DNA of 39,041 bases from Candidatus Parcubacteria bacterium (GTDB lineage Bacteria; Patescibacteriota; Patescibacteriia; Patescibacteriales; UBA12075). The DNA lies in contig JAGLYP010000012.1 in NCBI GenBank assembly GCA_023132155.1, positions 1 to 39,041 of the forward strand, read 5' to 3'. How positions within the stretch are numbered: the stretch's first letter is position 1; each line of letters begins with the position of its first letter. Under the pieces are notes generated by a model that made no database searches, had not been told where the DNA came from, and saw only the letters and a list, made by a program, of their open reading frames with translations. This document shows, piece after piece, positions 19,380-36,401 of this stretch. A program made the translations under genes and the position numbers.

Positions 19380-20381
19380 TTATATTTTTCTATTATCACT
19401 AAAGAGAAATTTAACAGCGATTAAACTTCCGCTAATAACTCCCACCACCCATGCTAAGGTTCTGTAGAGAAAGAATGGAATAAAAACAGGATATAAGCAT
19501 AGAGGAGGTTTTATTTCTAAAATGTTTTTTAGATAGATTAACAGTAATATGCTTAATAAGACAATGGCGGGATAAAAAAGTATATCATAAAAATAAGATA
19601 AAAACAGAAAGAGGAAGCCAAGAAAAAATAACGGTATTTGGGCAGTCATAGAAAGGCTGGTAATGGGATCGGAAATAGCTCTTGTATTATGTCTGAAAAT
19701 CAAGCGGAAAGCCCATTTTGCTTGATTTTTTAGTTGTTTAAAATATTCAATAAAAGCATTTCTGTGGTAATGCCAAACTTTGGCTTTTTTTGTGTAAATG
19801 ATTTTTCCGTATTTTGATAATCTAAAGCCAAAATCAGTTTCCACCGCCACCATTTGCGTTTCGTCAAATTTAACTTTTTTGGCGATTTCAGTTTTAAGGC
19901 AAAGGCTCATTGTCGGGGCGCGATATATATATTTTGGCATGCGGTTAAAACGATTATCCATTTCATAGCCGATTAAGTTTTGCAAAAAAGAAACATTTTT
20001 AGGAGTGCCGCAATAACCGGCGGTAGCAACAATTTTTTCTCCTTTTTTCCCTGTCTCAAAAGTTAGTATGAGTTCATTAAGCCAATTTGGATCAACCACG
20101 CAATCCGCGTCTGTCATTATTGTGTATTTTGTTTTTACATTATCAAGCGCCCAATTAATCCTCCAAGAAAGCCCTGTTTTTGGAAATCGTTTTAAATCAA
20201 TTTTTTCGTTGTACTTTTTTAGAATTTCATAAGTACCGTCAGTTGATCCGCCATCCAAAACCAAAATTCGCTCCGGCTTGCTATCAAGCGCCAAGAGCGA
20301 ATCAATACACATTTTAATCGTGTCGGCTTTGTTGTATGTTGCTACTAGGATAGTTGAGTTTGGTGAGGGTTTGTTATTCAT
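19380..20381 (-). CDS. GT2 glycosyltransferase with C-terminal membrane segments
   Basis: This is an inverting GT-A transferase: STILVATYNKADTIKMCIDSL, VLDGGSTDGTYEIL, the DxD-type YTIMTDADCVVDPNW, and the acceptor-side VETDFGFRLSKYG. Residues ~245-325 hold three hydrophobic segments (PLFFLGFLFLFLSYFYDILFY, AIVLLSILLLIYL, FIPFFLYRTLAWVVGVIS), so it acts at the inner face of the membrane. It overlaps the preceding methyltransferase by 4 bases (ATGA), ending the 11-gene minus operon. Confidence 0.92.
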   Translation of the reverse strand: MNNKPSPNSTILVATYNKADTIKMCIDSLLALDSKPERILVLDGGSTDGTYEILKKYNEKIDLKRFPKTGLSWRINWALDNVKTKYTIMTDADCVVDPNWLNELILTFETGKKGEKIVATAGYCGTPKNVSFLQNLIGYEMDNRFNRMPKYIYRAPTMSLCLKTEIAKKVKFDETQMVAVETDFGFRLSKYGKIIYTKKAKVWHYHRNAFIEYFKQLKNQAKWAFRLIFRHNTRAISDPITSLSMTAQIPLFFLGFLFLFLSYFYDILFYPAIVLLSILLLIYLKNILEIKPPLCLYPVFIPFFLYRTLAWVVGVISGSLIAVKFLFSDNRKI

Positions 20382-21028
20382 CTTTTTTGCAAAATAGTAA
20401 TCGATCTGTAAAAAGATTTTTTTGTTTTTATAATTTTAAATTCTTTTTTGTATAATCCATTTATATAATTTTTATTTGCGAAGAATAAATCAAATTCTTT
20501 TATCTCAGTTTTGTAACCATCCCAGGTAGGTTTTAGCCAAGGTATAAAATAGAAGTTTTTGCAAGCAAATAACATTATTTTCCAAAAAAGGTTATTATCA
20601 GGCTCAGCTATAAAAATATATCCTTTTGGTTTTAATACGTATTTTAAGTTATTTACAGCTTTATTATATTCCTCTTTTGTGTATAAGTGGTGTAATACAT
20701 CGTGTATTATTATTATATCAAAAGTATCTTTTTTATAAGAATTAGATAGGCTAGTAATTGATTCTAATTTAATATTATATTTTTTATCAAGGTTTTTTAC
20801 TAGATTTTTTTCAACTTCACATCCGAATAATTGATTAAAACCCCGTTTTTTCAAATAATCAAGGCAATAACCGGTTCCGCAACCACAATCGAAAATTTTA
20901 TGATTTTTTTCAATGTATTTTTTTATTTCTAATTCTCTCATTCGAAAAGAGCGAAAGAATTTTAATAGTTTGTTATCAACTAATTTTGAATATTTTTCAG
21001 CAAATTGAGGGTTGTATTCTTTATGCAT
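20378..21028 (-). CDS. Class I SAM-dependent methyltransferase
   Basis: Motif I is KIFDCGCGTGYCLDYLKKRG, followed by LFGCEVEKNL, then IIIIHDVLHHLYTKEEY and VLKPKGYIFIAEPD. At 216 residues it is a Methyltransf_11/25-like enzyme. The hydrophobic helix MLFACKNFYFIPWL near residue 160 may place it at the membrane with its lipid-linked substrate. It is two bases from the SMR gene stop and overlaps the GT2 start. Confidence 0.88.
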   Translation of the reverse strand: MHKEYNPQFAEKYSKLVDNKLLKFFRSFRMRELEIKKYIEKNHKIFDCGCGTGYCLDYLKKRGFNQLFGCEVEKNLVKNLDKKYNIKLESITSLSNSYKKDTFDIIIIHDVLHHLYTKEEYNKAVNNLKYVLKPKGYIFIAEPDNNLFWKIMLFACKNFYFIPWLKPTWDGYKTEIKEFDLFFANKNYINGLYKKEFKIIKTKKSFYRSITILQKR

Positions 21029-21029
21029 A

Positions 21030-21404
21030 TTATTTGATTGCTACAATAGTTATCCCGATAATGATTATTATTGTGCCCACTGTTCTTAGTGTAGTTATGT
21101 TTTCATTTAATATAAAGTGAGATGCTAATAGTACAAGTGCAAATATTGATGCGGACATAATTGGAAAAGCGTAGCTAAGTTCAAATTTTGATAATATATA
21201 TAGCCATGCAAAGGCGCCAATTGCATATATTAGTATTGCAGATACAATCCAACGGTTTTGTAAAAAAAATATTATTGAATGAGTAGATTCTTTTAGGGAA
21301 GAAAAGGAAATTTTTTCGTTAATCAAGTTAACTCCTAACTTCAAAAAAATTTGACCAATAGTTCCAGTGAGTATTATTGAAATAAAAACAATGTATTTAA
21401 TCAT
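21030..21404 (-). CDS. Small multidrug-resistance/EamA-type transporter (ArnE/ArnF-like)
   Basis: This 124-residue protein has four hydrophobic segments (YIVFISIILTGTIGQIFLKLG, WIVSAILIYAIGAFAWLYIL, YAFPIMSASIFALVLLASHFI, TVGTIIIIIGITIVAI). The ELSYAFPIMSAS loop matches the DMT/SMR superfamily. Family members flip polyprenyl-linked monosaccharides such as aminoarabinose. In this operon, next to a polyprenyl-phosphate GT2, flipping a polyprenyl-phosphate sugar for the GT39-like enzyme is the most attractive role. Confidence 0.85.
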   Translation of the reverse strand: MIKYIVFISIILTGTIGQIFLKLGVNLINEKISFSSLKESTHSIIFFLQNRWIVSAILIYAIGAFAWLYILSKFELSYAFPIMSASIFALVLLASHFILNENITTLRTVGTIIIIIGITIVAIK

Positions 21405-21408
21405 GGTT

Positions 21409-22464
21409 TTACCAATTTGTTTTATTTAATTCTATAGGTAATTTTGTATCTTCACTAATGTAAGAAAAATAATTTTTTATAAATTCTTTATCTTCGGCGA
21501 TTAAACATTTAGGATGATATTTTTTATAATATTTTGTTTTGATTCCTTTTTCTCTAATTTTTTTAAGACTTTCTTTTAAAACATTGCCCAGTGAAACATG
21601 TATAAATGGACAACCCAATACTTCTCCATAAGGAGTGATAAATAGAACTTCTTTAACTGCCGGACATCCACTCCCTTTAAATCCAGTATCAGTATCTCTC
21701 ACTATAAATGGGTATTTTTTTCTAAGTTCTAGAAAATATTTCGTGTCTTCCTTGGACATTAAAATATCAATATTTTTATCCCAATTTCCAGAAGGACTGG
21801 CATACAAGGTATTAATCATTATATTGTTTTTGTGTGCAAATTTTATTATTTCTTCAAAACCTTCAGATTTGATATTGAAGTGTGATACTGTTGTATTGAT
21901 GGTGTAATTCATTTTTAGCTTTTTGCAAATTTTAATTGCATTCATCACTTTATCATAGCTTCCTTTAACTCCTCTAAATTTGTCATGTTCTTCTGGGATG
22001 CCGCTATCAACACTAAAAATCATGTAGTCAACACCAATATTTTTTAATTCTTTTATTTTTTTTTCATCAACAATAAAGCCGTTAGATGTTACAGTGATTC
22101 TATTTTTTTGAGGAAATACAGATTTAATTATTTCCAAATAATCTTTTCGTAAAAACAATTCACCACCCTGAAATCCAAAATAAGTACATCCAAGTTTCAT
22201 TGCTTCTTTGGCAACTTTTTGGTAATCTTGTAGCATCATTTTTTTATGAAAACCTTCTTTAATCAATGTTTTATCGAAACAATGTTGGCAATTCAAATTG
22301 CAAGCGTAATCAATTGCAAAATCAATTCCACGAATTGGAGTATAATTTTTAAATAAAAGCATTTTTGAATAATAAAACAAAAGCCTTGAAATATATTTCG
22401 GCTTTTTTAAAATTAAACCATATTTCCATATAAAAAATATTTTTATTATTTTTTTGTTTATCAT
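21409..22464 (-). CDS. Radical SAM/SPASM-type protein
   Basis: The cluster motif CNLNCQHC is at 55-62, with the GGE motif (YFGFQGGELFLRKDYLEI). VTSNGFIVDEKKIKELKNIG, DYMIFSVDSGIPEEHDKFRG and a C-terminal region with GSGCPAVKEV, VLGCPFIHVSLGNVL and a last Cys (KCLIAEDKE) follow. This is the pattern of SPASM enzymes acting on peptides, sugars or lipid heads. Unlike the 13656 enzyme it has a basic, aromatic N-terminal extension (IIKIFFIWKYGLILKKPKYI), probably for membrane contact. The product is unknown. Confidence 0.9.
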   Translation of the reverse strand: MINKKIIKIFFIWKYGLILKKPKYISRLLFYYSKMLLFKNYTPIRGIDFAIDYACNLNCQHCFDKTLIKEGFHKKMMLQDYQKVAKEAMKLGCTYFGFQGGELFLRKDYLEIIKSVFPQKNRITVTSNGFIVDEKKIKELKNIGVDYMIFSVDSGIPEEHDKFRGVKGSYDKVMNAIKICKKLKMNYTINTTVSHFNIKSEGFEEIIKFAHKNNIMINTLYASPSGNWDKNIDILMSKEDTKYFLELRKKYPFIVRDTDTGFKGSGCPAVKEVLFITPYGEVLGCPFIHVSLGNVLKESLKKIREKGIKTKYYKKYHPKCLIAEDKEFIKNYFSYISEDTKLPIELNKTNW

Positions 22465-22473
22465 ATTATTTTA

Positions 22474-23070
22474 TTATTTTTTAAATAGTAGTATTTTAAA
22501 AATACCGTTAAAAAGGTTTTGATTTTTAATTAATTTAAAATTATTTTTTTTAAAAATATAAATAAAGTCCTCAATACGATAATTGTATTCTAATACATTT
22601 TTACCTCCTCTTAAAATTTCAGCTAAATATATAGATGTTTTTCCCGTAAATGAACCATGATCAGTTTGTGTTATACAAACATATTTTGAGCTAATATCCA
22701 TTAAGTTTTTGGCTATGGGCTCAAAATTTAAAAAGTGTTCCAACATTCCGTCTGAAAAGACAAATTCAAATTTTTCTTCTACGTCTTCAAGTCTTTTTTG
22801 GATAGCATTAAGTTCCTTTTTTTTGCAAATTTCAATAGCATTTTTTGATATATCAATTCCTAGTGTTTTTATATTAAGATCTTGAAATACTGAAAGCGTG
22901 TAACCAAGAGCGCAACCAACATCAATTGCAGATTTAGGATTTATTTTTTTTAATACATTTTTTAATGCGGCTTGTTTTGATTTAAGCATTAATTTTCCGA
23001 CGAAAGTCAAATTTTTTTCATCATTGTCGGCCCAGCGATTATTCCATTTTTTATATAGTTCATTATTCAT
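22474..23070 (-). CDS. Class I SAM-dependent methyltransferase
   Basis: Motif I is SAIDVGCALGYTLSVFQDLN, then TLGIDISKNAIEICKKKELN, and the FVFSDGMLEHFLNFEPIAKNL segment of the Methyltransf_11/23 type. At 198 residues it is a short one. It sits between the radical SAM gene (9 bases) and gmhA (1 base), so it probably modifies the heptose or a nearby sugar. Confidence 0.85.
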   Translation of the reverse strand: MNNELYKKWNNRWADNDEKNLTFVGKLMLKSKQAALKNVLKKINPKSAIDVGCALGYTLSVFQDLNIKTLGIDISKNAIEICKKKELNAIQKRLEDVEEKFEFVFSDGMLEHFLNFEPIAKNLMDISSKYVCITQTDHGSFTGKTSIYLAEILRGGKNVLEYNYRIEDFIYIFKKNNFKLIKNQNLFNGIFKILLFKK

Positions 23071-23071
23071 G

Positions 23072-23650
23072 CTAATTGTTTATTGTATTTTTAAAATAGC
23101 GCGTAACCAAATGCCCCAAAACCAAATGCACATCTTCGGCTATATCATAGCGATTAATTTTTGCCACAATGGCCACATCGGAAATTTTTGCCAATTCGCC
23201 GCCTTCAAAACCGGCAAAGCCGATTGTTTTGGCATTATGTTTTTTTGCTAAATTAATAGCATTGATAACATTAGGGGAGTTTCCGCTGGCGCTTATTCCA
23301 ATAACTACATCTCTGGAGTTAATTAAATTTTTTAGTTGGTCAGAAAAAATATGGCTATAATCCGTATCGTTTCCCCAAGCGGTCATTGTTGCCACATTAT
23401 CTGTCAAAGAAATCACTCTAAATCGCTTGGTGTTATTTTGGCCGTTGTTCAATAAGGTTCCTTTCCCAAGGTCGCAGGCAAAATGCGACGCGGTCGCGGC
23501 GCTCCCGCCGTTTCCCATAATAAATATTTGCTTGTCGTTTTTGTACGCATCATGGATGATTTCTGTAATTTTTTCTAAAATATTTAAATCCAGCTCGTCA
23601 ATCACTTTTTTTAAATCAGAGAAATATTTTTTTGCGGTTTCCTTTATCAT
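23072..23650 (-). CDS. gmhA: Sedoheptulose-7-phosphate isomerase GmhA
   Basis: This SIS-domain enzyme turns sedoheptulose 7-phosphate into D-glycero-D-manno-heptose 7-phosphate. The family marks are present: IFIMGNGGSAATASHFACDL, LTDNVATMTAWGNDTDYSHIF, VVIGISASGNSPNVINAI and the C-terminal EDVHLVLGHLVTRYF. At 192 residues it has normal length. It is the first step of the heptose module and lies 2 bases from hddA. Confidence 0.93.
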   Translation of the reverse strand: MIKETAKKYFSDLKKVIDELDLNILEKITEIIHDAYKNDKQIFIMGNGGSAATASHFACDLGKGTLLNNGQNNTKRFRVISLTDNVATMTAWGNDTDYSHIFSDQLKNLINSRDVVIGISASGNSPNVINAINLAKKHNAKTIGFAGFEGGELAKISDVAIVAKINRYDIAEDVHLVLGHLVTRYFKNTINN

Positions 23651-23652
23651 AT

Positions 23653-24624
23653 TTATAATTTGTGGATAATTTTACTTCCTTCCGGTTCAAAACCGAAAGG
23701 AGTTTCTTTCAAATTTTTAAGCGCTTGGCGAATTTTTTCTTGGTTTTCTTTTTTTGCGTAAAAAAGGAAGAATCCGCCTCCGCCGGCGCCGCAAATTTTG
23801 CCGCCCAAAGCGCCTTGATTAATTGCTTTTTGGTAATTTATGTCTATTTCAGGGTCGCTAATGCCGTTGGCAAGCTGTTTTTTTTCAAGCCAATTTTGGT
23901 GTAAAAGTTCTCCGATTTTATCTATATCGGAATTGATTAAATCCTCTTTCAATATATTAACAAAACCTCGCATTTTAATCAATGATTTTATTTTATCTTG
24001 TGTGTTGATTTTTTGTTTGCTTAATATCTGGTCGGCGTTTCTTGTTTTTCCTGTATAAAAAAGCAATAAATTTGAATCTAAGCCCTTTATCAAATTTTCA
24101 GATACCGGAATATTTTCAACTTTAACAGATTCGTCCGGGTTAAATGTAATTGTTTTTAAACCTCCGTAGGCGGCAATATATTGGTCTTGCTTGCCAATCG
24201 GTTTTTTCAGTATATCAATTTCTATTTTACATGCTTCTTGCGCTAATTCTTCCGGAGTTTTGTTTTCCCCTTTGTAAGAATATAAAGCGTTAAGCAGACC
24301 GACCGCGAAACTGCTTGAGGAGCCAAGGCCGACTCCGGAAACAGGGGCATCTGACATTGATACTATTTCAACTCCGCTGACGCCGGTTAATTTAAACGCT
24401 TCCCTGATGATATCGTTTTTTATTTTATCAATGTCTTTTCCTTCTTCAATTTTTGAATATTTTAATAAATAGCTTTCACCGTCAAAATGTTTGTGTACGC
24501 AAATATAAATATATTTATTTATCGCGGTGCTGATTACTTTACCTGGTTCGTTTTTGTAAAAAGCTCTAAGGTCGGTTCCTCCGCCGACAAAGCTTATTCT
24601 TAATGGAGTTTTTGATATTATCAT
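23653..24624 (-). CDS. hddA: D-glycero-alpha-D-manno-heptose 7-phosphate kinase (HddA-like, GHMP family)
   Basis: This GHMP kinase begins IISKTPLRISFVGGGTDL, has the ATP loop VSGVGLGSSSSFAVGLLNALYSY, the KPIGKQDQYIAAYGG segment and the third motif KICGAGGGGFFLFYAK. These features fit the HddA group better than galactokinase or the bifunctional HldE, and the gmhA and guanylyltransferase neighbours fix the pathway. The product is the 1,7-bisphosphate. Confidence 0.9.
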   Translation of the reverse strand: MIISKTPLRISFVGGGTDLRAFYKNEPGKVISTAINKYIYICVHKHFDGESYLLKYSKIEEGKDIDKIKNDIIREAFKLTGVSGVEIVSMSDAPVSGVGLGSSSSFAVGLLNALYSYKGENKTPEELAQEACKIEIDILKKPIGKQDQYIAAYGGLKTITFNPDESVKVENIPVSENLIKGLDSNLLLFYTGKTRNADQILSKQKINTQDKIKSLIKMRGFVNILKEDLINSDIDKIGELLHQNWLEKKQLANGISDPEIDINYQKAINQGALGGKICGAGGGGFFLFYAKKENQEKIRQALKNLKETPFGFEPEGSKIIHKL

Positions 24625-24626
24625 AA

Positions 24627-25916
24627 TTATTTCGAAATTTTATTTACCGCTAATAATAAATTATTTGCCCTTTTAGTCTTAATAGCGCATTTATCGAAAT
24701 ATTCCTGATTTCTTTTGACTAATATGGTTTTGATTTTTGCGTTTTTTCCTGTTTCAATGTCTCTTTCAGCGTCGCCGATTATCCATGAGTTTTTTAAGCC
24801 AATATTAAAATCTTTTTTTGCTTGCATTATCATGCCCGGTTTTGGCTTGCGGCATTCGCACTCAATTCGCAGTTCGGGAACTCCGGGAAATTCTTTGGCA
24901 GGATGATGCGGACAAAAATATATACCGTCCAGTTTTGCGCCCTCATTGCCCAGTAAAGTTTCCATTTTTTTGTGTATCTCATCAAGTTGGGCAAATGTTA
25001 TGAATCCTTTTGCCAGCATGGGCTGATTTGTAACTAAAATTGCCAGATATTCTGAGTTATTTATTTTTTTTATAGCCTCAATTGTCCTGGGAAGAATTTT
25101 AAAATCATCAATGTTGGATAGATTATCGGAATCATAATTTATTACGCCATCCCTGTCTAAAAAAATTGCTTTTCTTTTATTTTTTAAATTAAACCTATTT
25201 ATTTTTCCTGACTTATAATCTTTATTTACTTTTTTTAATCTTTCAAGGGTTCCCATATCTTTAATATATTCAGGGGTGTTGTAGCCGTATATTTTTTCTT
25301 TTTTAAATATTTTTGGAAAGATATTTTTACCAAAATCCAATTCTATGTTTTCTTGAGATTTAATCTGTTTAAGAATTTTGGGGGATAAAATATATACGCC
25401 GGCGTTTACCATGTTATGAAAATAAAAACCGGATTTATGGGGCTTGGAATGAAACGCTGTTACTTGGCATTCTTCATTAATTTCCACCAAATCACTGTCT
25501 TGCGGATGATCGTTAGAATGAAGTACAAGCGTGCAACTGCTTTTTTTCTGTTCGTGAAAATTAATTAATTTGTCAAAATTCATATCAAGCATTACATCGC
25601 CGTATAATAATAAAAAGTCATTTTTTAATTTATTTTCTATTAATTTAACCCTGTCTGCCGTACCGATATTAATTTTTGATTTAAAACAGCTGACATTTGC
25701 TTTGTATTTTTTTGATTTAACATAATTCTCAATAATTTCAGATTTATACCCTGTCAGTATTGTTATATTGTTTATATTATATTTTTCCAATAATCTGATT
25801 TGATGTTCCAATATCGGAGTCCCGCCGATTTTAATCATTGGCTTGGGAATTTTTTTGGTTAGATTTCCAAGCCGCGTGCCTTTGCCGCCGGCCAGGATTA
25901 CTGCTTGTTTTATCAT
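24627..25916 (-). CDS. hddC-gmhB: HddC-GmhB fusion: heptose-1-phosphate guanylyltransferase plus heptose-bisphosphate phosphatase
   Basis: Residues 1-~240 are a sugar-phosphate nucleotidyltransferase (AVILAGGKGTRLGNLT, LLYGDVMLDM, YIKDMGTLERL). Residues ~248-429 are a HAD-IIIA phosphatase with nucleophile motif IFLDRDGVIN (Asp 254, Asp 256), the zinc cluster FCPHHPAKE...ECECRKPKPGM (Cys335, His337, Cys353, Cys355) and WIIGDAERDIETG (Asp 382, Asp 386), all typical of GmhB. The fused chain would carry out the last two reactions, removing the 7-phosphate and then activating to GDP-heptose. It overlaps the radical SAM gene by 4 bases. The usual arrangement is two separate proteins. Confidence 0.9.
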   Translation of the reverse strand: MIKQAVILAGGKGTRLGNLTKKIPKPMIKIGGTPILEHQIRLLEKYNINNITILTGYKSEIIENYVKSKKYKANVSCFKSKINIGTADRVKLIENKLKNDFLLLYGDVMLDMNFDKLINFHEQKKSSCTLVLHSNDHPQDSDLVEINEECQVTAFHSKPHKSGFYFHNMVNAGVYILSPKILKQIKSQENIELDFGKNIFPKIFKKEKIYGYNTPEYIKDMGTLERLKKVNKDYKSGKINRFNLKNKRKAIFLDRDGVINYDSDNLSNIDDFKILPRTIEAIKKINNSEYLAILVTNQPMLAKGFITFAQLDEIHKKMETLLGNEGAKLDGIYFCPHHPAKEFPGVPELRIECECRKPKPGMIMQAKKDFNIGLKNSWIIGDAERDIETGKNAKIKTILVKRNQEYFDKCAIKTKRANNLLLAVNKISK

Positions 25917-27364
25917 TTTAAATATTTAAAAAATGTTTTAGCGGCTATCAAGAGCCTTTTAATTTCTTTCGGGTGCGTGATTACCTGTTTAAGCTTCATT
26001 AAAATATACGCGCTCCGCAAATAATATTCTTTTGTCGCTTTGTCGCAAAAGTTTAAAATATCTTCTCTCTTTACTTCCGGCAAGTTTAATACGCAATTGT
26101 AAGTGCCGTCATCTTTTAGCCATTCATTGTATTTGTCGGTTATAAGATATCCGTTTTCTTTGGCCCAAGCAAAGGCTTCGGTTCCGGGGTAGGGGATTAG
26201 CGGATAAAATTGCATGCTATCGCAATTCAGTTCTTTTGCCAAAGCAAGCGTTTCGTTCATTGTTTCTTTTGTTTCTTCCGGATTGCCGATAATAAAACAG
26301 CCGTGTACAAGCAGTTTTGCTTTTTTGCTGTCTTTGACAAATTGCCTGATTTGTTCCACTGTTATTCCTTTTTTTATGTTATTAAGCAATTTTTGGTTTC
26401 CGCTTTCAAAGCCGATAGTAAGTAAATGACAACCGGCTTTTTTCATCCATTGCATTGTTTCCAGATTCAAGTTCGCGCGGACATTGCAGTACCATTTTAG
26501 CTTTATTTTCTTTTCAATCAGCAATTTGCAAATTTTAATTACTCTTTCCTGATCGGCCGTAAAAGTGTCATCCTCAATGCCGATTTCTTTGACTTCAGGC
26601 AGATTGTTTTTGATATATTCAAATTCTTTAACTACGCTTTCCGCGCTTCTGAGGCGATAGCGGCGGCTGTGGAATGTCTGCGGGTACAGGCAGAAGAAAC
26701 ATCTGAAAGGACAGCCTCTTCCGGTAATAATCATTACCATCGGATAATCGGAAGCGGCAAAAAAATAGTTTTTTATTTTAAAATGTTTTTTATATATTTC
26801 ACTTGCGAAAGGCAGGTCATCAAGGTTTTCAATTAAATCGCGCGGCGGATTAAAAATAATTTTTTTGTTTTTTTGAAATATAACTCCATTAACGCTTGCC
26901 AAATTTCCCTTGTTAAGCAAACAATAAGCCAGGTCTTTTATAGTGTAGTCATATTCGCCTTTGGTTACGGCATCAATCTTGTCGCTTAACTTAAGCGTTT
27001 CTTCCGGGACAGCTGATGGGTGAGTGCCTACTAATATTATAAATGTGTCAGGAAGCAACTCTTTGATTTTTTCCGCGTTTTTTATGTCGCTGTAAATACT
27101 GGGAGTGCTGGTGTCAACTACCAATAGTTCGGGCGTAAAATTAACGATTTGTTTAATGGTTTCTTCTTTGCTTAATTTTTCAGCCGGTCCGTCAATGACT
27201 TTTATGTCAAATATTTTTTTCTCTTTGTTTTCCTTGTCCAAAACACCGACCGCGTAGGCGAGCCAAAAAGGAAAATAAATCGTGCCGCCTCTGGTTACGG
27301 CTGGACTGCGGGATGTTCGGGAAAATTTTTCTTTAAATGAAGGGTTTAAAAATAATACTTTCAT
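25913..27364 (-). CDS. B12-binding-domain radical SAM protein
   Basis: Residues ~55-155 look like a cobalamin-binding fold (VVDTSTPSIYSDIKNAEKIKELLP, TFIILVGTHPSAVPEETL). Residues from ~210 are the radical SAM core with CPFRCFFC at 218-225, IEDDTFTADQERV, the FESGNQKLLNNIKKGI segment and the GNPEETKETMNETLALAKEL repeat common to these enzymes. The C-terminus is helical. These class B-type enzymes methylate unactivated carbon or do other chain chemistry. It may act on the polyprenyl lipid or a sugar. No DxHxxG is visible in the B12 domain. Confidence 0.9.
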   Translation of the reverse strand: MKVLFLNPSFKEKFSRTSRSPAVTRGGTIYFPFWLAYAVGVLDKENKEKKIFDIKVIDGPAEKLSKEETIKQIVNFTPELLVVDTSTPSIYSDIKNAEKIKELLPDTFIILVGTHPSAVPEETLKLSDKIDAVTKGEYDYTIKDLAYCLLNKGNLASVNGVIFQKNKKIIFNPPRDLIENLDDLPFASEIYKKHFKIKNYFFAASDYPMVMIITGRGCPFRCFFCLYPQTFHSRRYRLRSAESVVKEFEYIKNNLPEVKEIGIEDDTFTADQERVIKICKLLIEKKIKLKWYCNVRANLNLETMQWMKKAGCHLLTIGFESGNQKLLNNIKKGITVEQIRQFVKDSKKAKLLVHGCFIIGNPEETKETMNETLALAKELNCDSMQFYPLIPYPGTEAFAWAKENGYLITDKYNEWLKDDGTYNCVLNLPEVKREDILNFCDKATKEYYLRSAYILMKLKQVITHPKEIKRLLIAAKTFFKYLK

Positions 27365-27717
27365 GAAATATTTTTATTATTAATATTTTTTAAAGCTTCT
27401 TTTCTGGTGTTTTCTTCCAGTTTTTTATTGATTTTATTAACTGTAAAATAATTGTTTACGGTTAAAATTGTTAAAAACATAAATCCAAAAATTGTGAAAA
27501 AATCCATAGCCCTGACAATTCCCAGTTCGGATATTAATGTTCCCAATAAATTCGGAAAAATTACCGCGAAAACAAAGCCGATCCAAATAGTTTGCCAAAT
27601 AATGAATTGCGAACGCCCGAATTCTTTTCTTTTATAATGCAGGAATATAAAATAGGCCATAAATAGGCCGAATAGTATGCCGATGATTTGTATGCCTAGA
27701 ATCATAGAAATCGCCAC
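27361..27717 (-). CDS. DUF2304 small membrane protein
   Basis: It has 118 residues with three hydrophobic segments (ILGIQIIGILFGLFMAYFIFL, IIWQTIWIGFVFAVIFPNLLG, FTIFGFMFLTILTVNNYF) and a charged C-terminal tail, the standard layout of DUF2304. This family very often follows polyprenyl-phosphate GT2 genes and probably helps them at the membrane. Here it overlaps the GT2 by 16 bases and the next gene by 4. Confidence 0.88.
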   Translation of the reverse strand: MAISMILGIQIIGILFGLFMAYFIFLHYKRKEFGRSQFIIWQTIWIGFVFAVIFPNLLGTLISELGIVRAMDFFTIFGFMFLTILTVNNYFTVNKINKKLEENTRKEALKNINNKNIS

Positions 27718-28391
27718 TTTAATAAATTAAAAAATATAATTATACCGTCAATCGGAGTTGTGCCTTTGTGGTTGTCTTTGTAGATGGTTTGAATAGGCAC
27801 TGTTCCATATTTTAAATTATGCTTTCCGGCCCTGATAATCATTTCAGTTTCAACTGAATAATCGGTTGATACCCAGTGGATTTTTTTGTAGGCATCAGCC
27901 GTAAAAATTCTAAAGCCCGATTGCGTGTCTTCTAATTTTATTTTTGAAACCAGGTTTATTATAAATGACAAAAATTTATTGCCGGCTCGCATCAGCAAGG
28001 GCATTTTTTTGCTAAAGGTTCTTAGCCCGAAGATGATATCCAATTTTTCTTTTTCTAGTTTATGTATTAATTTTGGGATGTCTTCCCCCATGTGCTGTCC
28101 GTCGCCGTCAATCATGACAAGTGTTTTTGCCCCCATTTTAATTGCCGCCTCACAGCCGGTTTTTATTGCCGCGCCTTTTCCCAAATTGATCTTATGTTTT
28201 AAAATTGTTATTTGATTGTTAAAATTTTGCTTTAGAAGCGCATAAGTATCGTCTTCGGAGCCGTCATCAATTACGATAATATTGGAAATATACTTTTTAA
28301 TATTATTAATAGTAGAAATGATATTATTTTCTTCATTATATGCCGGTATAACGGCATATACTTTATTATTTTTTTTTATTTCATGATTCAT
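27702..28391 (-). CDS. Polyprenyl-phosphate glycosyltransferase (GT2, DPM1-like)
   Basis: The GT-A signature is VYAVIPAYNEENNIISTI, IIVIDDGSEDDTYALL, HKINLGKGAAIKTGC and the DxD-like MIDGDGQHMGEDIP. It continues with QSGFRIFTADAYKKI and the VETEMIIRAGKHNLK helix, all typical of dolichyl/polyprenyl-phosphate mannose- or glucose-forming enzymes. At 229 residues it lacks a transmembrane tail, which DUF2304 next door may supply. It heads the minus operon behind the 28443-28471 promoter. Confidence 0.92.
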   Translation of the reverse strand: MNHEIKKNNKVYAVIPAYNEENNIISTINNIKKYISNIIVIDDGSEDDTYALLKQNFNNQITILKHKINLGKGAAIKTGCEAAIKMGAKTLVMIDGDGQHMGEDIPKLIHKLEKEKLDIIFGLRTFSKKMPLLMRAGNKFLSFIINLVSKIKLEDTQSGFRIFTADAYKKIHWVSTDYSVETEMIIRAGKHNLKYGTVPIQTIYKDNHKGTTPIDGIIIFFNLLKWRFL

Positions 28392-29878: not shown

Positions 29879-30934
29879 ATGAAAATATGCTATTTTGGCG
29901 ATTATGATGCTGGTTATTCCAGAAATCGCGTTATCATAAAAGGCTTAAAAGAAAATGATGTTACTATTTTTGAGTGCGGAAGTAAAATGCTTGGCTTCAA
30001 GAAGTTGTGTGAACTTTATAAAAAACATAAGCGTATAAAAAATAAATATGATATAATGATAATCGGTTATTCGGATAGCCGTTTTATTATATTTTTAGCC
30101 AAAATTTTGACAAGAAAAAAAATTATTTGGGATGCTTTTTATTCTTTATATGATTCTTGGGTGTATGATAGAAAATTAGTTTCAAAATATAGTCCAAAGG
30201 CTTGGTTGTATTGGCTGTATGACTGGTTTAATTGTGTTTTGGCTGACAAGATATTATTGGATACAGATGAGCATATTAATTATTTTGTTAAAACTTTTAA
30301 AATAAATAGAAATAAGTTTATAAAAATTTTGGTTGGGACTGATGATAATATTTTTTACCCTCGCGAGCAAAAAAAAGATAACAAATTTATTGTTCATTTC
30401 CATGGAAATTATATTCCTCTTCAAGGCGCGGAGTATATTATAGGCGCGGCTCAATTAATAAAAGATAAAGATATTTTATTTAGAATGGTGGGATCCAAGG
30501 GGCAAAAGTATAAAGAAATATTGAGTTTAGCAAAAAAAATGAATTTAAGTAATATTGAATTTTTAAATTCCGTACCATACCACATACTCCCGGAGCTAAT
30601 GGCGAAGGTAGACGTTTGCTTAGGTGTTTTTGGAGACACAGATAAAACAAAAAGGGTTATTCCAAATAAGGTATATGAGGCAATCGCAATGGAAAAGCCG
30701 GTTATTACAGCTAATACTCCTGCCGCCCAAGAATTATTTGTTGATAAAAAAAATATTTTATTTTGCGAAACGGCTAATTCTGAAAATTTAGCAAAAAAAA
30801 TTAAAGAAATTAAAAATAATAAAATATTAAAAAATAATATCGCAAAAAACGGTTATGATGTTTTTAAAAATAAGTGCAGACCCAAAATACTTATTAAAGA
30901 TTTATTAAAACAATTGTCTGATGAATTTAAATAA
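29879..30934 (+). CDS. GT4-family glycosyltransferase
   Basis: The N-terminal part begins KICYFGDYDAGYSRNRVII and has the WDAFYSLYDSWVYDRKLV region. The donor domain shows IVHFHGNYIPLQGAEYIIGAA, FLNSVPYHILPELMAKVDVCLGVFG and IPNKVYEAIAMEKPVITANT. The fit to GT4 is good, with the usual Glu-rich donor loop. It overlaps the DUF616 gene by 14 bases and begins 3 bases after the GT39-like stop, so the four genes 28484-32369 are probably one transcript. Confidence 0.9.
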   Translation: MKICYFGDYDAGYSRNRVIIKGLKENDVTIFECGSKMLGFKKLCELYKKHKRIKNKYDIMIIGYSDSRFIIFLAKILTRKKIIWDAFYSLYDSWVYDRKLVSKYSPKAWLYWLYDWFNCVLADKILLDTDEHINYFVKTFKINRNKFIKILVGTDDNIFYPREQKKDNKFIVHFHGNYIPLQGAEYIIGAAQLIKDKDILFRMVGSKGQKYKEILSLAKKMNLSNIEFLNSVPYHILPELMAKVDVCLGVFGDTDKTKRVIPNKVYEAIAMEKPVITANTPAAQELFVDKKNILFCETANSENLAKKIKEIKNNKILKNNIAKNGYDVFKNKCRPKILIKDLLKQLSDEFK

Positions 30935-31697
30935 AGGCAAATATAAAAAAATAATTATATATACCGCAATTTTCGGAGGAAAAGATAATTTAATTGAGCC
31001 TAAAGTTGTTCCTGAAAATTGTGATTTTATTTGTTTTACTGATTTAAATATTAATTCCAAAACATGGAAAGTAGTTAAAGTTGAGCCTTCGGTTAAGGGT
31101 GATTTTGTGAGAAGCGCGAGAAAATATAAGATTTTAGCGCATAGATATTTATCTGAATATAAATACAGTATTTGGGTGGATGGAAATTTATTAATTAGGG
31201 GTGATGTGGTAGAATTAATTAATAAGTATTTAAAAGATGCAAATATAGCGGTTTTTGATCACGCTAATTATAAAAGCAATTTGGGATATAATAAATTGCA
31301 GAATTTTTTAAATATTTTTCGCAGGAAATATGAGCTTGTCAGATATTGCGCATACGAAGAAGCAAAAAAATTAATAGAAATGAATAAGAATGGAATATAT
31401 AAAGATGATTCAAATGTAATCAAGAGTCAAATGGATAGATATAGAGTCGAAAAATATCCGAAAAATAATTCCGTTATTCAAAGTTCTGTTTTGGTAAGAA
31501 GGCATAATTCTTCTGATGTGATCAAAACCATGGAAGATTGGTGGAAAGAAATAAAAGAATATAGCCGAAGAGATCAGTTAAGTTTTAATTATGTGGCATG
31601 GAAAAATAAATTAAATTTTGTTTATATGAAAGGCGACCCAAGAAAGAATCGTTATGTCTTTCGTTTGCCCCATGCGATAAAGAAAGATTTTAGATAA
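30921..31697 (+). CDS. DUF616/TOD1-like glycosyltransferase
   Basis: This is a 258-residue GT-A-like protein: IIIYTAIFGGKDNLIEPKVV, CDFICFTDLNINSKTWKVVKV, SARKYKILAHRYLSEYKYSIWVDGN, VFDHANYKSNLGYN, and the C-terminal SRRDQLSFNYVAWKNKLNF. These match the DUF616 family. WVDGNLLI is the likely metal or nucleotide site. The sugar and acceptor are unknown. Confidence 0.85.
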   Translation: MNLNKGKYKKIIIYTAIFGGKDNLIEPKVVPENCDFICFTDLNINSKTWKVVKVEPSVKGDFVRSARKYKILAHRYLSEYKYSIWVDGNLLIRGDVVELINKYLKDANIAVFDHANYKSNLGYNKLQNFLNIFRRKYELVRYCAYEEAKKLIEMNKNGIYKDDSNVIKSQMDRYRVEKYPKNNSVIQSSVLVRRHNSSDVIKTMEDWWKEIKEYSRRDQLSFNYVAWKNKLNFVYMKGDPRKNRYVFRLPHAIKKDFR

Positions 31698-31709: not shown

Positions 31710-32369
31710 ATGAATAAAAATGAAATAAATTTTAGACCCCCCCGTGAAGCTTATTATGATATGAGTTATAATAAATTACATCGCTTTATTCTTTATTATT
31801 ATCAGATATTTCATGTGGTAAAAACAAAGCCGCAAAATGTTTTAGATATCGGCGTAGGCGCCAAGACAGTTTCCGACGAACTTAAAAAAATGGGTTTGGA
31901 TGTAGTTACTTGCGATATTGATCCGAATTTAAATCCGGATGTCGTAGCTGATATAAAAAATTTATCTTTCAAGGAAAATGAATTTGACACAGTGATGGCC
32001 TGCGAAGTCTTGGAGCATTTGCCTTTTTCCGATTTTGAAGCATCGCTAAAAGAATTAAAAAGAGTAGCCAAAAATAATGTTATTATTTCAATCCCTTATT
32101 TTTCCGGATTTACGCAATTAAGATTTAGAATGTCGCTTAATATTTTGAAATTAAATATTGACAGAGACATGGGGGCGGTGTTGCGGCTGCCTTACTTTTT
32201 TAAAAAGGTGGATATTAATAAAAATAAAAAACATTATTGGGAAATGGGAGCAAAATATTATTCAAAGCGGAAAATTAGAAAAATTGTAAATAAATATTTT
32301 AAAATAAAAAAAGAATTTTATGTCCCGCTTAGCCCGAAACATTATTTTTTTATTTTAGAAAGTGATTAA
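31710..32369 (+). CDS. Class I SAM-dependent methyltransferase
   Basis: Motif I is VLDIGVGAKTVSDELKKMG, then CDIDPNLNPDVVADIKNLSF and the FDTVMACEVLEHLPFSDFEA segment of the Methyltransf_11 fold. At 219 residues it is complete. A run of seven C (GACCCCCCCGTG near 31735) lies early in the coding sequence at residues ~9-11, a possible slippage site. It starts 12 bases after the DUF616 stop. Confidence 0.88.
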   Translation: MNKNEINFRPPREAYYDMSYNKLHRFILYYYQIFHVVKTKPQNVLDIGVGAKTVSDELKKMGLDVVTCDIDPNLNPDVVADIKNLSFKENEFDTVMACEVLEHLPFSDFEASLKELKRVAKNNVIISIPYFSGFTQLRFRMSLNILKLNIDRDMGAVLRLPYFFKKVDINKNKKHYWEMGAKYYSKRKIRKIVNKYFKIKKEFYVPLSPKHYFFILESD

Positions 32370-32376
32370 ATGTAGT

Positions 32377-33972
32377 ATGAGTGTAAAAATTAGCGTTATT
32401 ATTCCAACTTGCAATAGACCCGAGAGAGTAGGAGCAGCTATTAAAAGTGTTCTTGCGCAAACATTTCAAGATTTTGAAATAATTATAGTTGATGATGGGT
32501 TAAAGAAGCGAGCCGAAAAAGCGGTTAAAGAATTTGATGATAAAAGAATCGCGTATATTCAGCATGAAATAAATAAAGGCGGAGGCGCCGCCAGAAATAC
32601 CGGCATTAAAAACGCCAAAGCGGATTTAATCGTTTTTTTAGACGATGATGACGAGTGGTATCCGGAGAAATTAGAAAAGCAATATAAAATAATTAAAAAA
32701 TATTGGGAGGAAATCGGTTTTGTATTTTGTCGAATTGAACTTGATTATGATGAAGAAGATAGAATTGACAAACAAAATTTGAAACAAATCGGCATTAATG
32801 ATTTGTATCAGGATTTGCTAGCTCATAAACTTAGAACTTTAACTTCGTCTTTATTGATAAAAAAAGAAGCGCTTGAAAAAGTTAAGGGGTTTGATGTTGA
32901 ATTTCCCAGTTGTCAGGAATGGGATATGATGATTAGGATATCCAGATATTATAAGGGGTATGGCATGAATGAAGTTTTGGTTAAGATGCATTATCTGCAA
33001 GGAGATCATGTGGGCGGAAATTTAAGCAAGCGAATATTAGGCAGGGAATTATTACTTAAAAAACATTTTGATGAGTTAAAAAAAATGCCAAAGGTTTTAG
33101 CTTGGCATTATTTTCAATTGGGTATTTTTTGCAGGGGTAATGAAGATTTTAAAAAGGCAGGAGAATATTTTTTAAAGGCGTGGGGGTTGAATAAAATAAA
33201 AACGAGATATTTATTACATTTTTTTTATATCTATTTTTTAAAAATTAAATTAAATTTAATTTGTATTATTGGTTATTCCCATGTTGGCCTATTTATTCGT
33301 TCGCGTTATTTTAAATATTATATAAGAAAAATAATTATAAAAAATATTAATGTTGTTAATATACTTGATGCCGGATGCGGCAGAGCGTTATATTCCAGAT
33401 TGTTAGCCGAGATGTTTCCGCAAGCAAAAGTTACAGGGTATGATATAAAGAAGTCGCAAGATTGGGAAAAAAATAAGAGAAATAATTTATTTTTAATAGA
33501 AAAAGATATTACAAAGTTAGATGAAAATAATATTTATGATTTGATTATATCAATAGATGTTTTAGAGCACATACCTAAAAATAAAATTGTGATGGAAAAG
33601 ATTTATAAAGCTTTGAAGGTTGGAGGTTTTTTTTACTGTACTATACCAAATGACAAGGCAAAAAAAAGGTTATTTCCGAATAAATATTTTATTCAATTTG
33701 ATAAGTGGGACGCAATAGAACATATTGGAGAACAATATGATTTGTATCAGCTCAAAGAATTAATGCAAACAATTGGATTTAAAATTAATTTTGCAAGATA
33801 CACTTTTACATTTTGGGGTAATTTGGCATGGGAAATTAATACAATATTGAAAGGGAAAAAAGTAGGAGATAAGTTAAATATAATATTAATGCCGTTATAT
33901 AGAATATTAACTTGGTTAGATATAAATTTTCCACTCGGAAAGGGAAATAATTTAATTATTGCAAGTAAATAA
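32377..33972 (+). CDS. GT2 glycosyltransferase fused to a SAM methyltransferase
   Basis: The N-terminal ~255 residues are a GT-A transferase (ISVIIPTCNRPERVGAAIKS, IIIVDDGLKKRAEKAVKEF, DLIVFLDDDDEWYPEKLEKQ, FPSCQEWDMMIRISRYY), followed by a short helical bridge (FKKAGEYFLKAWGLNK). From ~305 a methyltransferase begins: VNILDAGCGRALYSRLLAEMF, VTGYDIKKSQDW, LIISIDVLEHIPKN and VGGFFYCTIPNDK. The fusion suggests sugar addition and its methylation are coupled. ATG at 32377 is preferred to GTG at 32362. Confidence 0.9.
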   Translation: MSVKISVIIPTCNRPERVGAAIKSVLAQTFQDFEIIIVDDGLKKRAEKAVKEFDDKRIAYIQHEINKGGGAARNTGIKNAKADLIVFLDDDDEWYPEKLEKQYKIIKKYWEEIGFVFCRIELDYDEEDRIDKQNLKQIGINDLYQDLLAHKLRTLTSSLLIKKEALEKVKGFDVEFPSCQEWDMMIRISRYYKGYGMNEVLVKMHYLQGDHVGGNLSKRILGRELLLKKHFDELKKMPKVLAWHYFQLGIFCRGNEDFKKAGEYFLKAWGLNKIKTRYLLHFFYIYFLKIKLNLICIIGYSHVGLFIRSRYFKYYIRKIIIKNINVVNILDAGCGRALYSRLLAEMFPQAKVTGYDIKKSQDWEKNKRNNLFLIEKDITKLDENNIYDLIISIDVLEHIPKNKIVMEKIYKALKVGGFFYCTIPNDKAKKRLFPNKYFIQFDKWDAIEHIGEQYDLYQLKELMQTIGFKINFARYTFTFWGNLAWEINTILKGKKVGDKLNIILMPLYRILTWLDINFPLGKGNNLIIASK

Positions 33973-34054: not shown

Positions 34055-35305
34055 ATGAATAAAAATAAAAAATTTAAAATTATTTCTAAAAAAGAAATTA
34101 ATATGGTTTGGCGCGAGGAATGGAAGAAAGATATAAATTCAAACCCTAAGGCTTTTTGGGGGCAGAGGCTTTTTCTTGAGGGCTACCTTGTATTTAAAAA
34201 ATATATTTCGGAAAAAGCAGGGCAGATTATTTTGGATATTGGCAGCGGTACGGGGAGGTATGGCGTAAAATTCGCGCAAGATTTTCCAAATAGCAAGGTT
34301 ATAATTTCAGATATTTTGGAGGAATCATTAGTTATTGGCAGAAAGTTAGCGGATTATTTGGGCGTGAAAAACGCGCAATTTCAAAAAGAAGATGTTTTAA
34401 AAATGTCGTTTCCGGATAATCATTTTGATGTTATTTTTTGTGATGTGTTAATTCAGCATATACCGAATTATGAGGCGGCCATGTCTGAAATGAAGCGTGT
34501 TTTAAAGCCTGGAGGCCGGATAATTGTTTCCGCCGTTAATTATTGGAATCCGCATACTTTGTATAAATTTTTTCTTAAATTAAGGGGTAAGGGATATGAA
34601 TATAATTATGAGAAATCATTCAAGAAAAAAGAATTAAGAAAATTATTTGAAGATTTTAATTTGGAAGTTGTCGGTGAAGATGGTTTTTATTTTGCTTATG
34701 GATTGTTTCGCCTTAAAAAATATTATGATAAATTTTTTCGGTTTTTGGGCGGCGCTTGCAATAGAATAGTAACAAAATTTATTGATCCTGTTACAAATAG
34801 ATTTGTTTCCCGTTTTTTCGGCTTTGAGATATTTATTGTCGGTGAAAAAAAGAAAGACGATGATCAATATAAAATAAAAGTAAAAAATTCCGGAATTGTA
34901 AAGTTGCAATTTTATAATGATTTTCCTGACGGAAATTTGGTTATAGCCGAATCGCTGAAAAGCGTTCCCTTTGAAATAAAAAGAATTTATTTTGTAAATA
35001 GCCTGCATAATCAAGAGGCGATACGCGGCAAGCACGCGCATAAAAAATTAGAGCAATATATTTTTTGTATTAATGGAAAATTTACTTTAAGTTTGGATGA
35101 CGGGACAGTAAAACAAAAAATCAGATTAGATAGTCCGTATTACGGAGTAAGACTTGGTCCGGAGTTGTGGCACACAATGATAGAGTTTTCACCGGATTGC
35201 GTTATTTTGGTTTTTGCCGGTGATTATTATAATGAAAGCGATTACATAAGGGATTATGATGAATTTTTAAAATATATAAAAAATAATCGGAATGATATTA
35301 TTTAA
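34055..35305 (+). CDS. SAM methyltransferase fused to FdtA-type sugar 3,4-ketoisomerase
   Basis: The N-terminal ~265 residues form a methyltransferase (ILDIGSGTGRYGVKFAQDF, ISDILEESLVIGRKLADYLG, VIFCDVLIQHIPNYEAAMSE, VLKPGGRIIVSAVNYWN). From ~277 a small cupin follows (IRGKHAHKKLEQYIFCINGKF, WHTMIEFSPDCVILVFAGDYY), matching FdtA/QdtA-type 3,4-oxoisomerases (WxcM-like) that act on dTDP-4-keto-6-deoxyglucose. It is followed with a 14-base overlap by the FdtB-type aminotransferase, which fits. FdtC and RmlA/RmlB are not in the window. Confidence 0.9.
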   Translation: MNKNKKFKIISKKEINMVWREEWKKDINSNPKAFWGQRLFLEGYLVFKKYISEKAGQIILDIGSGTGRYGVKFAQDFPNSKVIISDILEESLVIGRKLADYLGVKNAQFQKEDVLKMSFPDNHFDVIFCDVLIQHIPNYEAAMSEMKRVLKPGGRIIVSAVNYWNPHTLYKFFLKLRGKGYEYNYEKSFKKKELRKLFEDFNLEVVGEDGFYFAYGLFRLKKYYDKFFRFLGGACNRIVTKFIDPVTNRFVSRFFGFEIFIVGEKKKDDDQYKIKVKNSGIVKLQFYNDFPDGNLVIAESLKSVPFEIKRIYFVNSLHNQEAIRGKHAHKKLEQYIFCINGKFTLSLDDGTVKQKIRLDSPYYGVRLGPELWHTMIEFSPDCVILVFAGDYYNESDYIRDYDEFLKYIKNNRNDII

Positions 35306-36401
35306 TGATTTTAAAAAGAAATATAAAATATACAAGAAAGAAATTGATGGTGCAATAAACAGAGTTTTAAAGAGCGGGTGGTTTGTACTGGGAAATGAAT
35401 TAAGAAGTTTTGAAGAAAATTTTTCCAAATATTTGGGAATAAAATATGTTGTGGGTGTAAATTCAGGCACGGATGCTATATTTTTGGGATTAAAAGCGCT
35501 TGGCGTAAAAGACGGCGATGAAGTGATTACCGTTGCCAACACCGCTGTCCCGACAGTCGCGGCAATACGCATGGCAGGAGGAGTGCCGGTGTTTGTTGAT
35601 ATAGATGAAGACACAATGAATATTGATCCCGGTTTAATTAAAAAAGCGATTACCAAAAAAACAAAAGCGATTTTGCCGGTTCATTTATTCGGCTATCCGG
35701 CTGAAATAAATAAGATATTAAAAATTGCCCGAAAATATAAATTAAAAATAATTGAAGACGCGGCGCAAGCTGTTGGCGCGCAATTCAAAAATAGAATGGC
35801 AGGCACTTTTGGCGATATCGGCTGTTTTAGTTTTTATCCGACAAAAAATTTGGGCGCGTTCGGCGATGCTGGGGCAATAGTTACAAATAATAAAAAAATA
35901 GCCGATAGAGTAAGGCAATTAAGAAATTACGGTGAGGTTTCTAAATATAATAATACTATTGAAGGCGTAAATAGCCGGCTAGATGAAATTCAGGCGGGAA
36001 TTCTTAACTGGGAATTGCAAGAATTGAATCAATGGAATAAAAAAAGAGAAAAGCTGGTAAAATTATATATTAATAATTTGCAAAATGTCTCCGAGATAAA
36101 ATTGCCAATTGATTCTGATAAATTTCATAAAAATGTTTGGCATTTGTTCGTTGTCAGGACAAAACAAAGAAAGCGATTGCAGGATTTTTTATTGAAAAAC
36201 GGAGTTCAGACCGCGATTCATTATCCTATGCCCATATACAAACAGCCGGTTTATAGAAATTTTGGTTTTTCAGATAAAGATTTGCCAAAAACAAAGAAAG
36301 TTATGTCGGAAATTTTATCACTGCCGTTAAATCCTGAATTGGAAGAAAAGCAAGTAAATTATATTTGCGATAAAATAAAATTTTTTTATGCCAGTAAATA
36401 G
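35292..36401 (+). CDS. fdtB: DegT/DnrJ/EryC1/StrS aminotransferase, FdtB-like
   Basis: This PLP-dependent sugar aminotransferase has GVNSGTDAIFLGLKALGV, TVANTAVPTVAAIRMAGG, FVDIDEDTMNID, LPVHLFGYPAEINKI, IEDAAQAVGAQF and the cofactor lysine in FYPTKNLGAFGDAGAI. RQLRNYGEVSKYNN and LDEIQAGILNWELQELNQWN finish the fold. Its place behind the FdtA domain suggests it makes a 3-amino-3,6-dideoxyhexose. It overlaps the next gene by 14 bases. Confidence 0.92.
   Translation: MILFNDFKKKYKIYKKEIDGAINRVLKSGWFVLGNELRSFEENFSKYLGIKYVVGVNSGTDAIFLGLKALGVKDGDEVITVANTAVPTVAAIRMAGGVPVFVDIDEDTMNIDPGLIKKAITKKTKAILPVHLFGYPAEINKILKIARKYKLKIIEDAAQAVGAQFKNRMAGTFGDIGCFSFYPTKNLGAFGDAGAIVTNNKKIADRVRQLRNYGEVSKYNNTIEGVNSRLDEIQAGILNWELQELNQWNKKREKLVKLYINNLQNVSEIKLPIDSDKFHKNVWHLFVVRTKQRKRLQDFLLKNGVQTAIHYPMPIYKQPVYRNFGFSDKDLPKTKKVMSEILSLPLNPELEEKQVNYICDKIKFFYASK

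What the first reader, a model, noticed from the sequence alone, without database searches (positions are those of the whole stretch)
23072..25916. Complete GDP-heptose module with a HddC-GmhB fusion
gmhA, hddA and a fused guanylyltransferase-phosphatase lie head to tail within 2.9 kb with gaps of 2 bases. Four activities in three proteins suffice to go from sedoheptulose 7-phosphate to GDP-D-glycero-D-manno-heptose. Fusion of the last two enzymes, with the transferase first, suggests channelling. An organism of this type making its own heptose for surface glycans is notable.
Basis: partly seen in the sequence, partly recalled or inferred. Interest (0 to 1): 0.58.

Follow-up and report, generated by a model that had tools for sequence, protein, structure and literature searches.

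The report
Sugar-nucleotide operon with fused heptose enzyme
A small-genome bacterium carries a compact, probably acquired set of three genes that most likely builds an activated seven-carbon sugar for its surface, with the last two enzymes fused; the fusion occurs in many other bacteria, but the first enzyme has an altered metal site and the cell seems unable to make the starting sugar itself.

Summary
gmhA-like (23072-23650), hddA-like (23653-24624) and a 429-aa nucleotidyltransferase-GmhB fusion (24627-25916) lie on the minus strand, 2 bp apart, inside a longer glycan operon. All catalytic motifs of both halves of the fusion are intact. Both halves fall in one clade with the same fusion in Flavobacteriales, Clostridia and Erysipelotrichaceae; it also occurs on Lawsonia, Methylovirgula, Rhizobium and Azospirillum plasmids. 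RefSeq calls the annotated copies 'HAD-IIIA family hydrolase'. So the fusion is not unique to this genome, though I found no paper describing it. Unfused versions occur in at least six other genomes of the phylum.

Two results change the reading. First, the GmhA-like protein lacks two of the four zinc ligands reported as completely conserved in GmhA (E68 to D, Q175 to E). It belongs to a D/E subfamily cleanly separate from E/Q GmhAs. Second, the 98.8%-complete genome has no detectable transketolase, transaldolase or phosphoketolase; all ten sampled heptose-gene carriers of the phylum have transketolase. 'Complete from sedoheptulose 7-phosphate' is therefore true of the module but not of the cell, unless the substrate is scavenged or is a different sugar. 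GTP use and channelling are untested.

The parts
24627..25916 (-). Fused nucleotidyltransferase (aa 1-235) and GmhB-type HAD-IIIA phosphatase (aa 249-407), 429 aa
   Evidence: Motifs: GGKGTR (10-15), PKP (24-26), D107, D220; DRDG (254-257), TNQ (296-298), Zn C335/H337/C353/C355, K357, D382/D386; all invariant in 12 homologous fusions except K12
23653..24624 (-). HddA-like GHMP sugar-1-kinase, 323 aa
   Evidence: Equivalents of WcbL R13, D22, S118-120, Q162, D163 (essential, PMC4691232) are all present
23072..23650 (-). GmhA-like SIS isomerase of the D/E subfamily, 192 aa
   Evidence: Ligand positions H/D/E/H instead of H/E/Q/H; D61 position is T
25913..27364 (-). B12-binding radical SAM protein (HpnJ-like), overlaps the fusion start by 4 bp; same operon
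27361..27717 (-). DUF2304 membrane protein, overlaps the next gene; same operon
27702..28391 (-). GT2 polyprenyl-phosphate-sugar synthase-like, first gene of the operon
22474..23070 (-). SAM methyltransferase, 1 bp after the gmhA-like gene
21409..22464 (-). Radical SAM/SPASM protein
21030..21404 (-). Small EamA/TMEM234-like membrane protein
   Evidence: weak matches, below cut-off
20378..21028 (-). SAM methyltransferase
19380..20381 (-). GT2 glycosyltransferase, last gene of the close-packed minus-strand run

Best explanation
The three genes form a nucleotide-sugar module, probably acquired horizontally, inside a surface-glycan operon. The most likely route is: the GmhA-like isomerase converts a ketose phosphate (sedoheptulose 7-phosphate) to heptose 7-phosphate; the HddA-like GHMP kinase phosphorylates C1; the GmhB half removes the C7 phosphate; and the N-terminal transferase half couples heptose 1-phosphate to a nucleotide, most likely GTP. 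The product would be used by glycosyltransferases of the same cluster. The fusion joins two consecutive steps and appears to be a single old fusion shared across several phyla. Shown: gene order, domain content, intact motifs of the fused protein and kinase, shared ancestry of the fusions, absence of the usual S7P-making enzymes, and the altered metal ligands of the isomerase. Inferred: substrates, nucleotide, product and surface role. Because the cell seems unable to make S7P, it would have to obtain it, or a precursor, from a host or neighbouring cells.
For: Domain and motif content. The AF2 model of the fusion folds well (pLDDT 83, pTM 0.82), and its transferase half matches GMPPB/VTC1 and Yersinia HddC (5xhw, 6jq8; TMt about 0.85). 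The same trio occurs elsewhere: HddA-fusion-GmhA in a rumen Clostridia MAG and HddA-epimerase-fusion-GmhA in Erysipelotrichaceae; fusion plus GHMP kinase in Lawsonia; GHMP kinase, SIS, epimerase and fusion in Methylovirgula. The transferase half shares an (N/T)DHPxDSDL-type motif with unfused transferases of HddA/GmhA/GmhB modules of the same phylum, absent from the plant M1P-GT (VTC1) sequence compared. A GHMP-type rather than RfaE-type kinase points to the alpha/GDP branch (pathway knowledge; PMC10680097). No fusion in 59 relatives of the same order. The contig belongs to the genome: its ThrRS is 80% identical to that of a same-genus genome.
Against: No transketolase N or pyrimidine domain, transaldolase/FSA or phosphoketolase in the genome. 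Two Zn ligands and one Ser/Thr phosphate-site residue differ from characterised GmhAs (PMC5705639; PMC7705670). None of the proteins passes a curated equivalog cut-off. The transferase half scores higher against mannose-1-P guanylyltransferase (133 bits) and archaeal GlmU-type (123) models than against HddC (85).
Confidence: 0.55

Rival explanations
1. The module runs the same four-step chemistry on a different ketose phosphate (a pentulose or hexulose phosphate the cell can make), giving a non-heptose NDP-sugar.
For: No S7P-producing enzyme found in this genome or in most of its sampled family. The isomerase belongs to a D/E metal-ligand subfamily distinct from all characterised GmhAs cited. 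Some D/E-type genes sit away from heptose genes (L112 and L113).
Against: The kinase keeps all residues tested as essential in the heptokinase WcbL (PMC4691232). The GmhB half is a close GmhB match. Other genomes with D/E-type isomerases and the same module do have transketolase.
Confidence: 0.25
2. It makes a heptose nucleotide other than GDP-heptose (ADP-, CDP-, UDP- or dTDP-heptose).
For: The transferase half is not an HddC-model member (85 of 300 bits) and matches several nucleotidyltransferase families. The GmhB half scores higher with the beta-anomer model (165.5) than the alpha model (110.5).
Against: GHMP-type kinase of the alpha branch. The best transferase matches are guanylyltransferases by profile, sequence and fold. 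The beta-anomer GmhB model simply has broad reach: it also matches the fusion next to HddA in L024.
Confidence: 0.15
3. The module is a recent acquisition that is idle or decaying in this genome, for want of substrate.
For: No fusion in 59 same-order relatives and no S7P source.
Against: All three ORFs are intact, tightly coupled, and every motif of the fusion and kinase is conserved.
Confidence: 0.05

Closest known systems
[quoted passage not shown]
   Same: Same four predicted activities; GHMP-type kinase; HAD-IIIA GmhB with Zn motif; small nucleotidyltransferase without a C-terminal beta-helix
   Different: GmhB and transferase fused; transferase outside the HddC model; isomerase with H/D/E/H ligands; cell lacks transketolase
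NTase-GmhB fusions annotated 'HAD-IIIA family hydrolase' in RefSeq (Lawsonia, Methylovirgula, Rhizobium) and in Flavobacteriales and Firmicutes MAGs
   Same: Full-length similarity 41-47% to the closer ones, one clade in both domain trees (MAG copies), several next to a GHMP kinase and SIS protein
   Different: Flavobacteriales copies stand alone next to TamB-like and TsaD genes; Rhizobium and Methylovirgula copies carry an extra C-terminal region of about 200 aa
Unfused HddA/GmhA/GmhB/NTase clusters in the same phylum (G326, G114, G313, G225, G356, G084)
   Same: Same four components adjacent; most with D/E-type isomerase
   Different: Four separate genes (GmhB before the transferase in G326); genomes have transketolase
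ADP-heptose pathway (GmhA, HldE, GmhB)
   Same: GmhA and GmhB families
   Different: Kinase here is GHMP, not RfaE/ribokinase type; no HldE in the module

Membership tests
GmhA (sedoheptulose 7-phosphate isomerase) | SIS fold family match | tested here: met
   PF13580 E 1e-18; phosphoheptose isomerases are the best PDB matches
GmhA (sedoheptulose 7-phosphate isomerase) | Zn ligands H64, E68, Q175, H183, stated to be completely conserved in GmhA orthologues (PMC5705639) | tested here: not met
   H/D/E/H in the window protein. So filed as GmhA-like, not GmhA
GmhA (sedoheptulose 7-phosphate isomerase) | NCBIfam TIGR00441 equivalog cut-off (209 bits) | tested here: not met
   111.9 bits
HddA (heptose 7-phosphate kinase) | Residues essential in WcbL: R13, D22, S118-120, Q162, D163 (PMC4691232) | tested here: met
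   all identical in the alignment to 4usm/4usk
HddA (heptose 7-phosphate kinase) | NCBIfam NF049969 equivalog cut-off (600 bits) | tested here: not met
   149.9 bits, but it is the best model
GmhB (heptose 1,7-bisphosphate 7-phosphatase) | HAD motifs I-IV and the CxH...CxC zinc motif | tested here: met
   D254/D256, T296, K357, D382/D386; C335, H337, C353, C355; invariant in 12 fusions
GmhB (heptose 1,7-bisphosphate 7-phosphatase) | NCBIfam PRK08942 cut-off (178 bits) | tested here: not met
   165.5 bits; narrowly missed (a Flavobacteriales fusion reaches 180.9)
HddC (heptose 1-phosphate guanylyltransferase) | NCBIfam NF049965 cut-off (300 bits) | tested here: not met
   84.6 bits
HddC (heptose 1-phosphate guanylyltransferase) | Nucleotidyltransferase fold and catalytic signature | tested here: met
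   GGxGTR/PKP/D107/D220; fold match to 5xhw/6jq8 with TMt about 0.85
HddC (heptose 1-phosphate guanylyltransferase) | GTP specificity | not testable with these tools
   needs an enzyme assay
Complete GDP-heptose pathway in the cell | A source of sedoheptulose 7-phosphate | tested here: not met
   no PF00456, PF02779, PF00923 or PF09364 in the genome; import or other routes not tested

The most novel reading that the evidence does not exclude
The D/E-type isomerases are a separate enzyme family that acts on, or produces, a sugar phosphate other than the standard GmhA pair. The trio is then an undescribed four-step route to a different activated sugar, usable by cells without transketolase.
Probability: 0.2. 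Interest if true: 0.6.

Novelty: new variant of a known kind. Interest (0 to 1): 0.36.

Why it matters
If the reading holds, a bacterium with no visible way to make sedoheptulose 7-phosphate keeps an intact module that consumes it, which would be a genomic sign of taking phosphorylated sugars (or a precursor) from another cell. The clean split of GmhA-like proteins into E/Q and D/E metal-ligand types means many 'phosphoheptose isomerase' labels may cover two different enzymes. The widespread fused NTase-GmhB protein has only a generic database name and can be assayed directly.

Tried and rejected
Misbinned contig: rejected, because ThrRS on the same contig is 80% identical to a same-genus genome and 68% to two family members. 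Archaeal host: not supported; L15e is absent while it is found in four archaeal controls. No SSU rRNA was found, so the phylum rests on inference. Fusion unique to this genome: rejected. Fusion in G326: the fusion-length frame with a TAG turned out to be adjacent separate GmhB and transferase genes. A GmhA domain as the C-terminal extension of the Rhizobium proteins: rejected; only a P-loop PRK-like match to that region. Literature search for a description of the fusion: none found in the open library. Repeat search around the module gave only AT-rich chance repeats.

Full report
What is there. On the minus strand, 25916-24627 encodes a 429-aa protein, 24624-23653 a 323-aa protein and 23650-23072 a 192-aa protein, with 2-bp gaps. 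The 429-aa protein is a nucleotidyltransferase (aa 5-235) followed by a GmhB-type HAD-IIIA phosphatase (aa 249-407). The 323-aa protein is a GHMP kinase whose best NCBIfam model is HddA, and the 192-aa protein is a SIS isomerase whose best model is GmhA. The trio sits in a longer close-packed operon, 28391-19380: GT2, DUF2304, B12/radical SAM, fusion, kinase, isomerase, methyltransferase, radical SAM/SPASM, small membrane protein, methyltransferase, GT2. None of the four activities reaches the curated equivalog threshold, so 'complete GDP-heptose module' is an inference.

The fusion. Both halves keep their motifs: GGxGTR, PKP, D107 and D220 in the transferase; DRDG, TNQ, the CxH...CxC zinc motif, K357 and D382/D386 in the phosphatase. 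All are invariant among twelve homologous fusions. AlphaFold2 gives a confident two-domain model (pLDDT 83, pTM 0.82). Foldseek places the transferase half next to GMPPB/VTC1 and Yersinia HddC. GTP specificity could not be tested here, and channelling is only a possibility.

Where else the fusion occurs. Full-length relatives at 41-47% identity occur in Schleiferiaceae/Cryomorphaceae and other Flavobacteriales, rumen Clostridia and Erysipelotrichaceae. Plasmids of Lawsonia, Methylovirgula, Rhizobium, Azospirillum and others carry it too, and RefSeq names the annotated copies 'HAD-IIIA family hydrolase'. In trees of each half the MAG fusions and the window's form one group, so a single fusion event fits (approximate trees, few sequences). 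HddA and GmhA-like genes adjoin it in L024 and L027, a GHMP kinase in Lawsonia, and a GHMP kinase, SIS protein and epimerase in Methylovirgula. In Flavobacteriales it stands alone between housekeeping genes. Among 59 genomes of the window's order none other has it, so it was probably acquired horizontally.

The same module, unfused, in the phylum. A search of 380 genomes of the phylum with the GmhB half found 39 with a match, the window's own included. Of eleven loci read, six have HddA, a GmhA-like gene, GmhB and a transferase side by side as separate genes. At least two others carry the RfaE/HldE (ADP-heptose) type. ADP-heptose genes in the CPR class Paceibacteria have been reported (PMC9166423). 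Heptose genes in such organisms are thus uncommon but not new. The window genome is probably a patescibacterium: small genomes throughout the phylum, no archaeal L15e. It has no detectable SSU rRNA to confirm this.

No visible source of substrate. The genome is 98.8% complete, yet has no transketolase N-terminal or pyrimidine-binding domain, no transaldolase/FSA and no phosphoketolase. Eight of the nine sampled genomes of its family, including all three of its genus, lack transketolase, whereas all ten sampled genomes elsewhere in the phylum with heptose-type genes have it. The contig is not misbinned. The module therefore starts from a metabolite the cell does not obviously make. Scavenging or a different substrate are the two main ways out; other S7P routes such as sedoheptulokinase were not searched.

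The isomerase is not a standard GmhA. In characterised GmhAs zinc is held by H64, E68, Q175 and H183 (B. pseudomallei numbering). These are described as completely conserved, and changes at all of them reduce activity; Q175E was one of the impaired variants, and it trapped the substrate (PMC5705639). The window protein has H, D, E, H. It also has T at D61, whose loss leaves 6% activity in B. pseudomallei, and A at the Thr122 phosphate-site position, where T122A costs about 14-fold in M. tuberculosis (PMC7705670; residue mapping). In an alignment of about 40 distinct sequences the pair is always D...E or E...Q, never mixed, apart from one degenerate outlier, L110. With these columns masked, the E/Q proteins still form a supported group (0.999), with the D/E proteins outside it. 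D/E types tend to lie near HddA (11 of 19) and E/Q types near HldE genes (11 of 19; Fisher p 0.017 and 0.005, not corrected for relatedness, hand-counted after removing duplicates). D/E enzymes may still be S7P isomerases with a re-balanced metal site, or they may use another sugar phosphate. The kinase, by contrast, keeps every residue shown to be essential in WcbL (PMC4691232).

Conclusion. The best reading is a horizontally acquired nucleotide-heptose module, probably GDP-linked, with a bifunctional phosphatase/transferase that is common in databases but apparently undescribed, serving a surface-glycan operon in a bacterium that must obtain the starting sugar elsewhere. The fusion itself is modest news. 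The D/E isomerase subfamily and the missing substrate supply are the points worth testing.

Noticed in passing
36388-37359 and 37363-37647: Two adjacent ORFs cover consecutive parts of one GT4 glycosyltransferase domain (profile 7-102 and 108-171): a split or frameshifted gene.
   Followed up: no
34055-36401: Methyltransferase fused to a WxcM/FdtA-type sugar ketoisomerase, followed by a DegT/DnrJ aminotransferase: suggests a dTDP-3-amino-sugar branch in the same contig.
   Followed up: no
32362-33972: GT2 glycosyltransferase fused to a methyltransferase.
   Followed up: no
30921-31697: TOD1/MUCI70-type glycosyltransferase domain, better known from plants.
   Followed up: no
L080:4983-6932, L079:6064-7908: Rhizobium and Methylovirgula fusions carry a further C-terminal region of about 200 aa; in Rhizobium it matches a P-loop phosphoribulokinase/uridine kinase family.
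   Followed up: partly
L018-L025, L029: In Flavobacteriales the fusion is a lone gene convergent with a TamB-like gene and near TsaD, without HddA or GmhA close by.
   Followed up: partly
L078: Lawsonia intracellularis plasmid has the fusion and a GHMP kinase beside a radical SAM gene, several methyltransferases and a GT2, a neighbourhood like the window's operon.
   Followed up: partly
19380-28391: Mosaic composition: flanking methyltransferase and radical SAM genes have third-position GC of 0.18-0.22, module and B12-radical SAM genes 0.31-0.40.
   Followed up: no
G001:C58 (L075): The same-genus genome carries two ThrRS genes (80% and 56% identical to the window's) on one contig.
   Followed up: no
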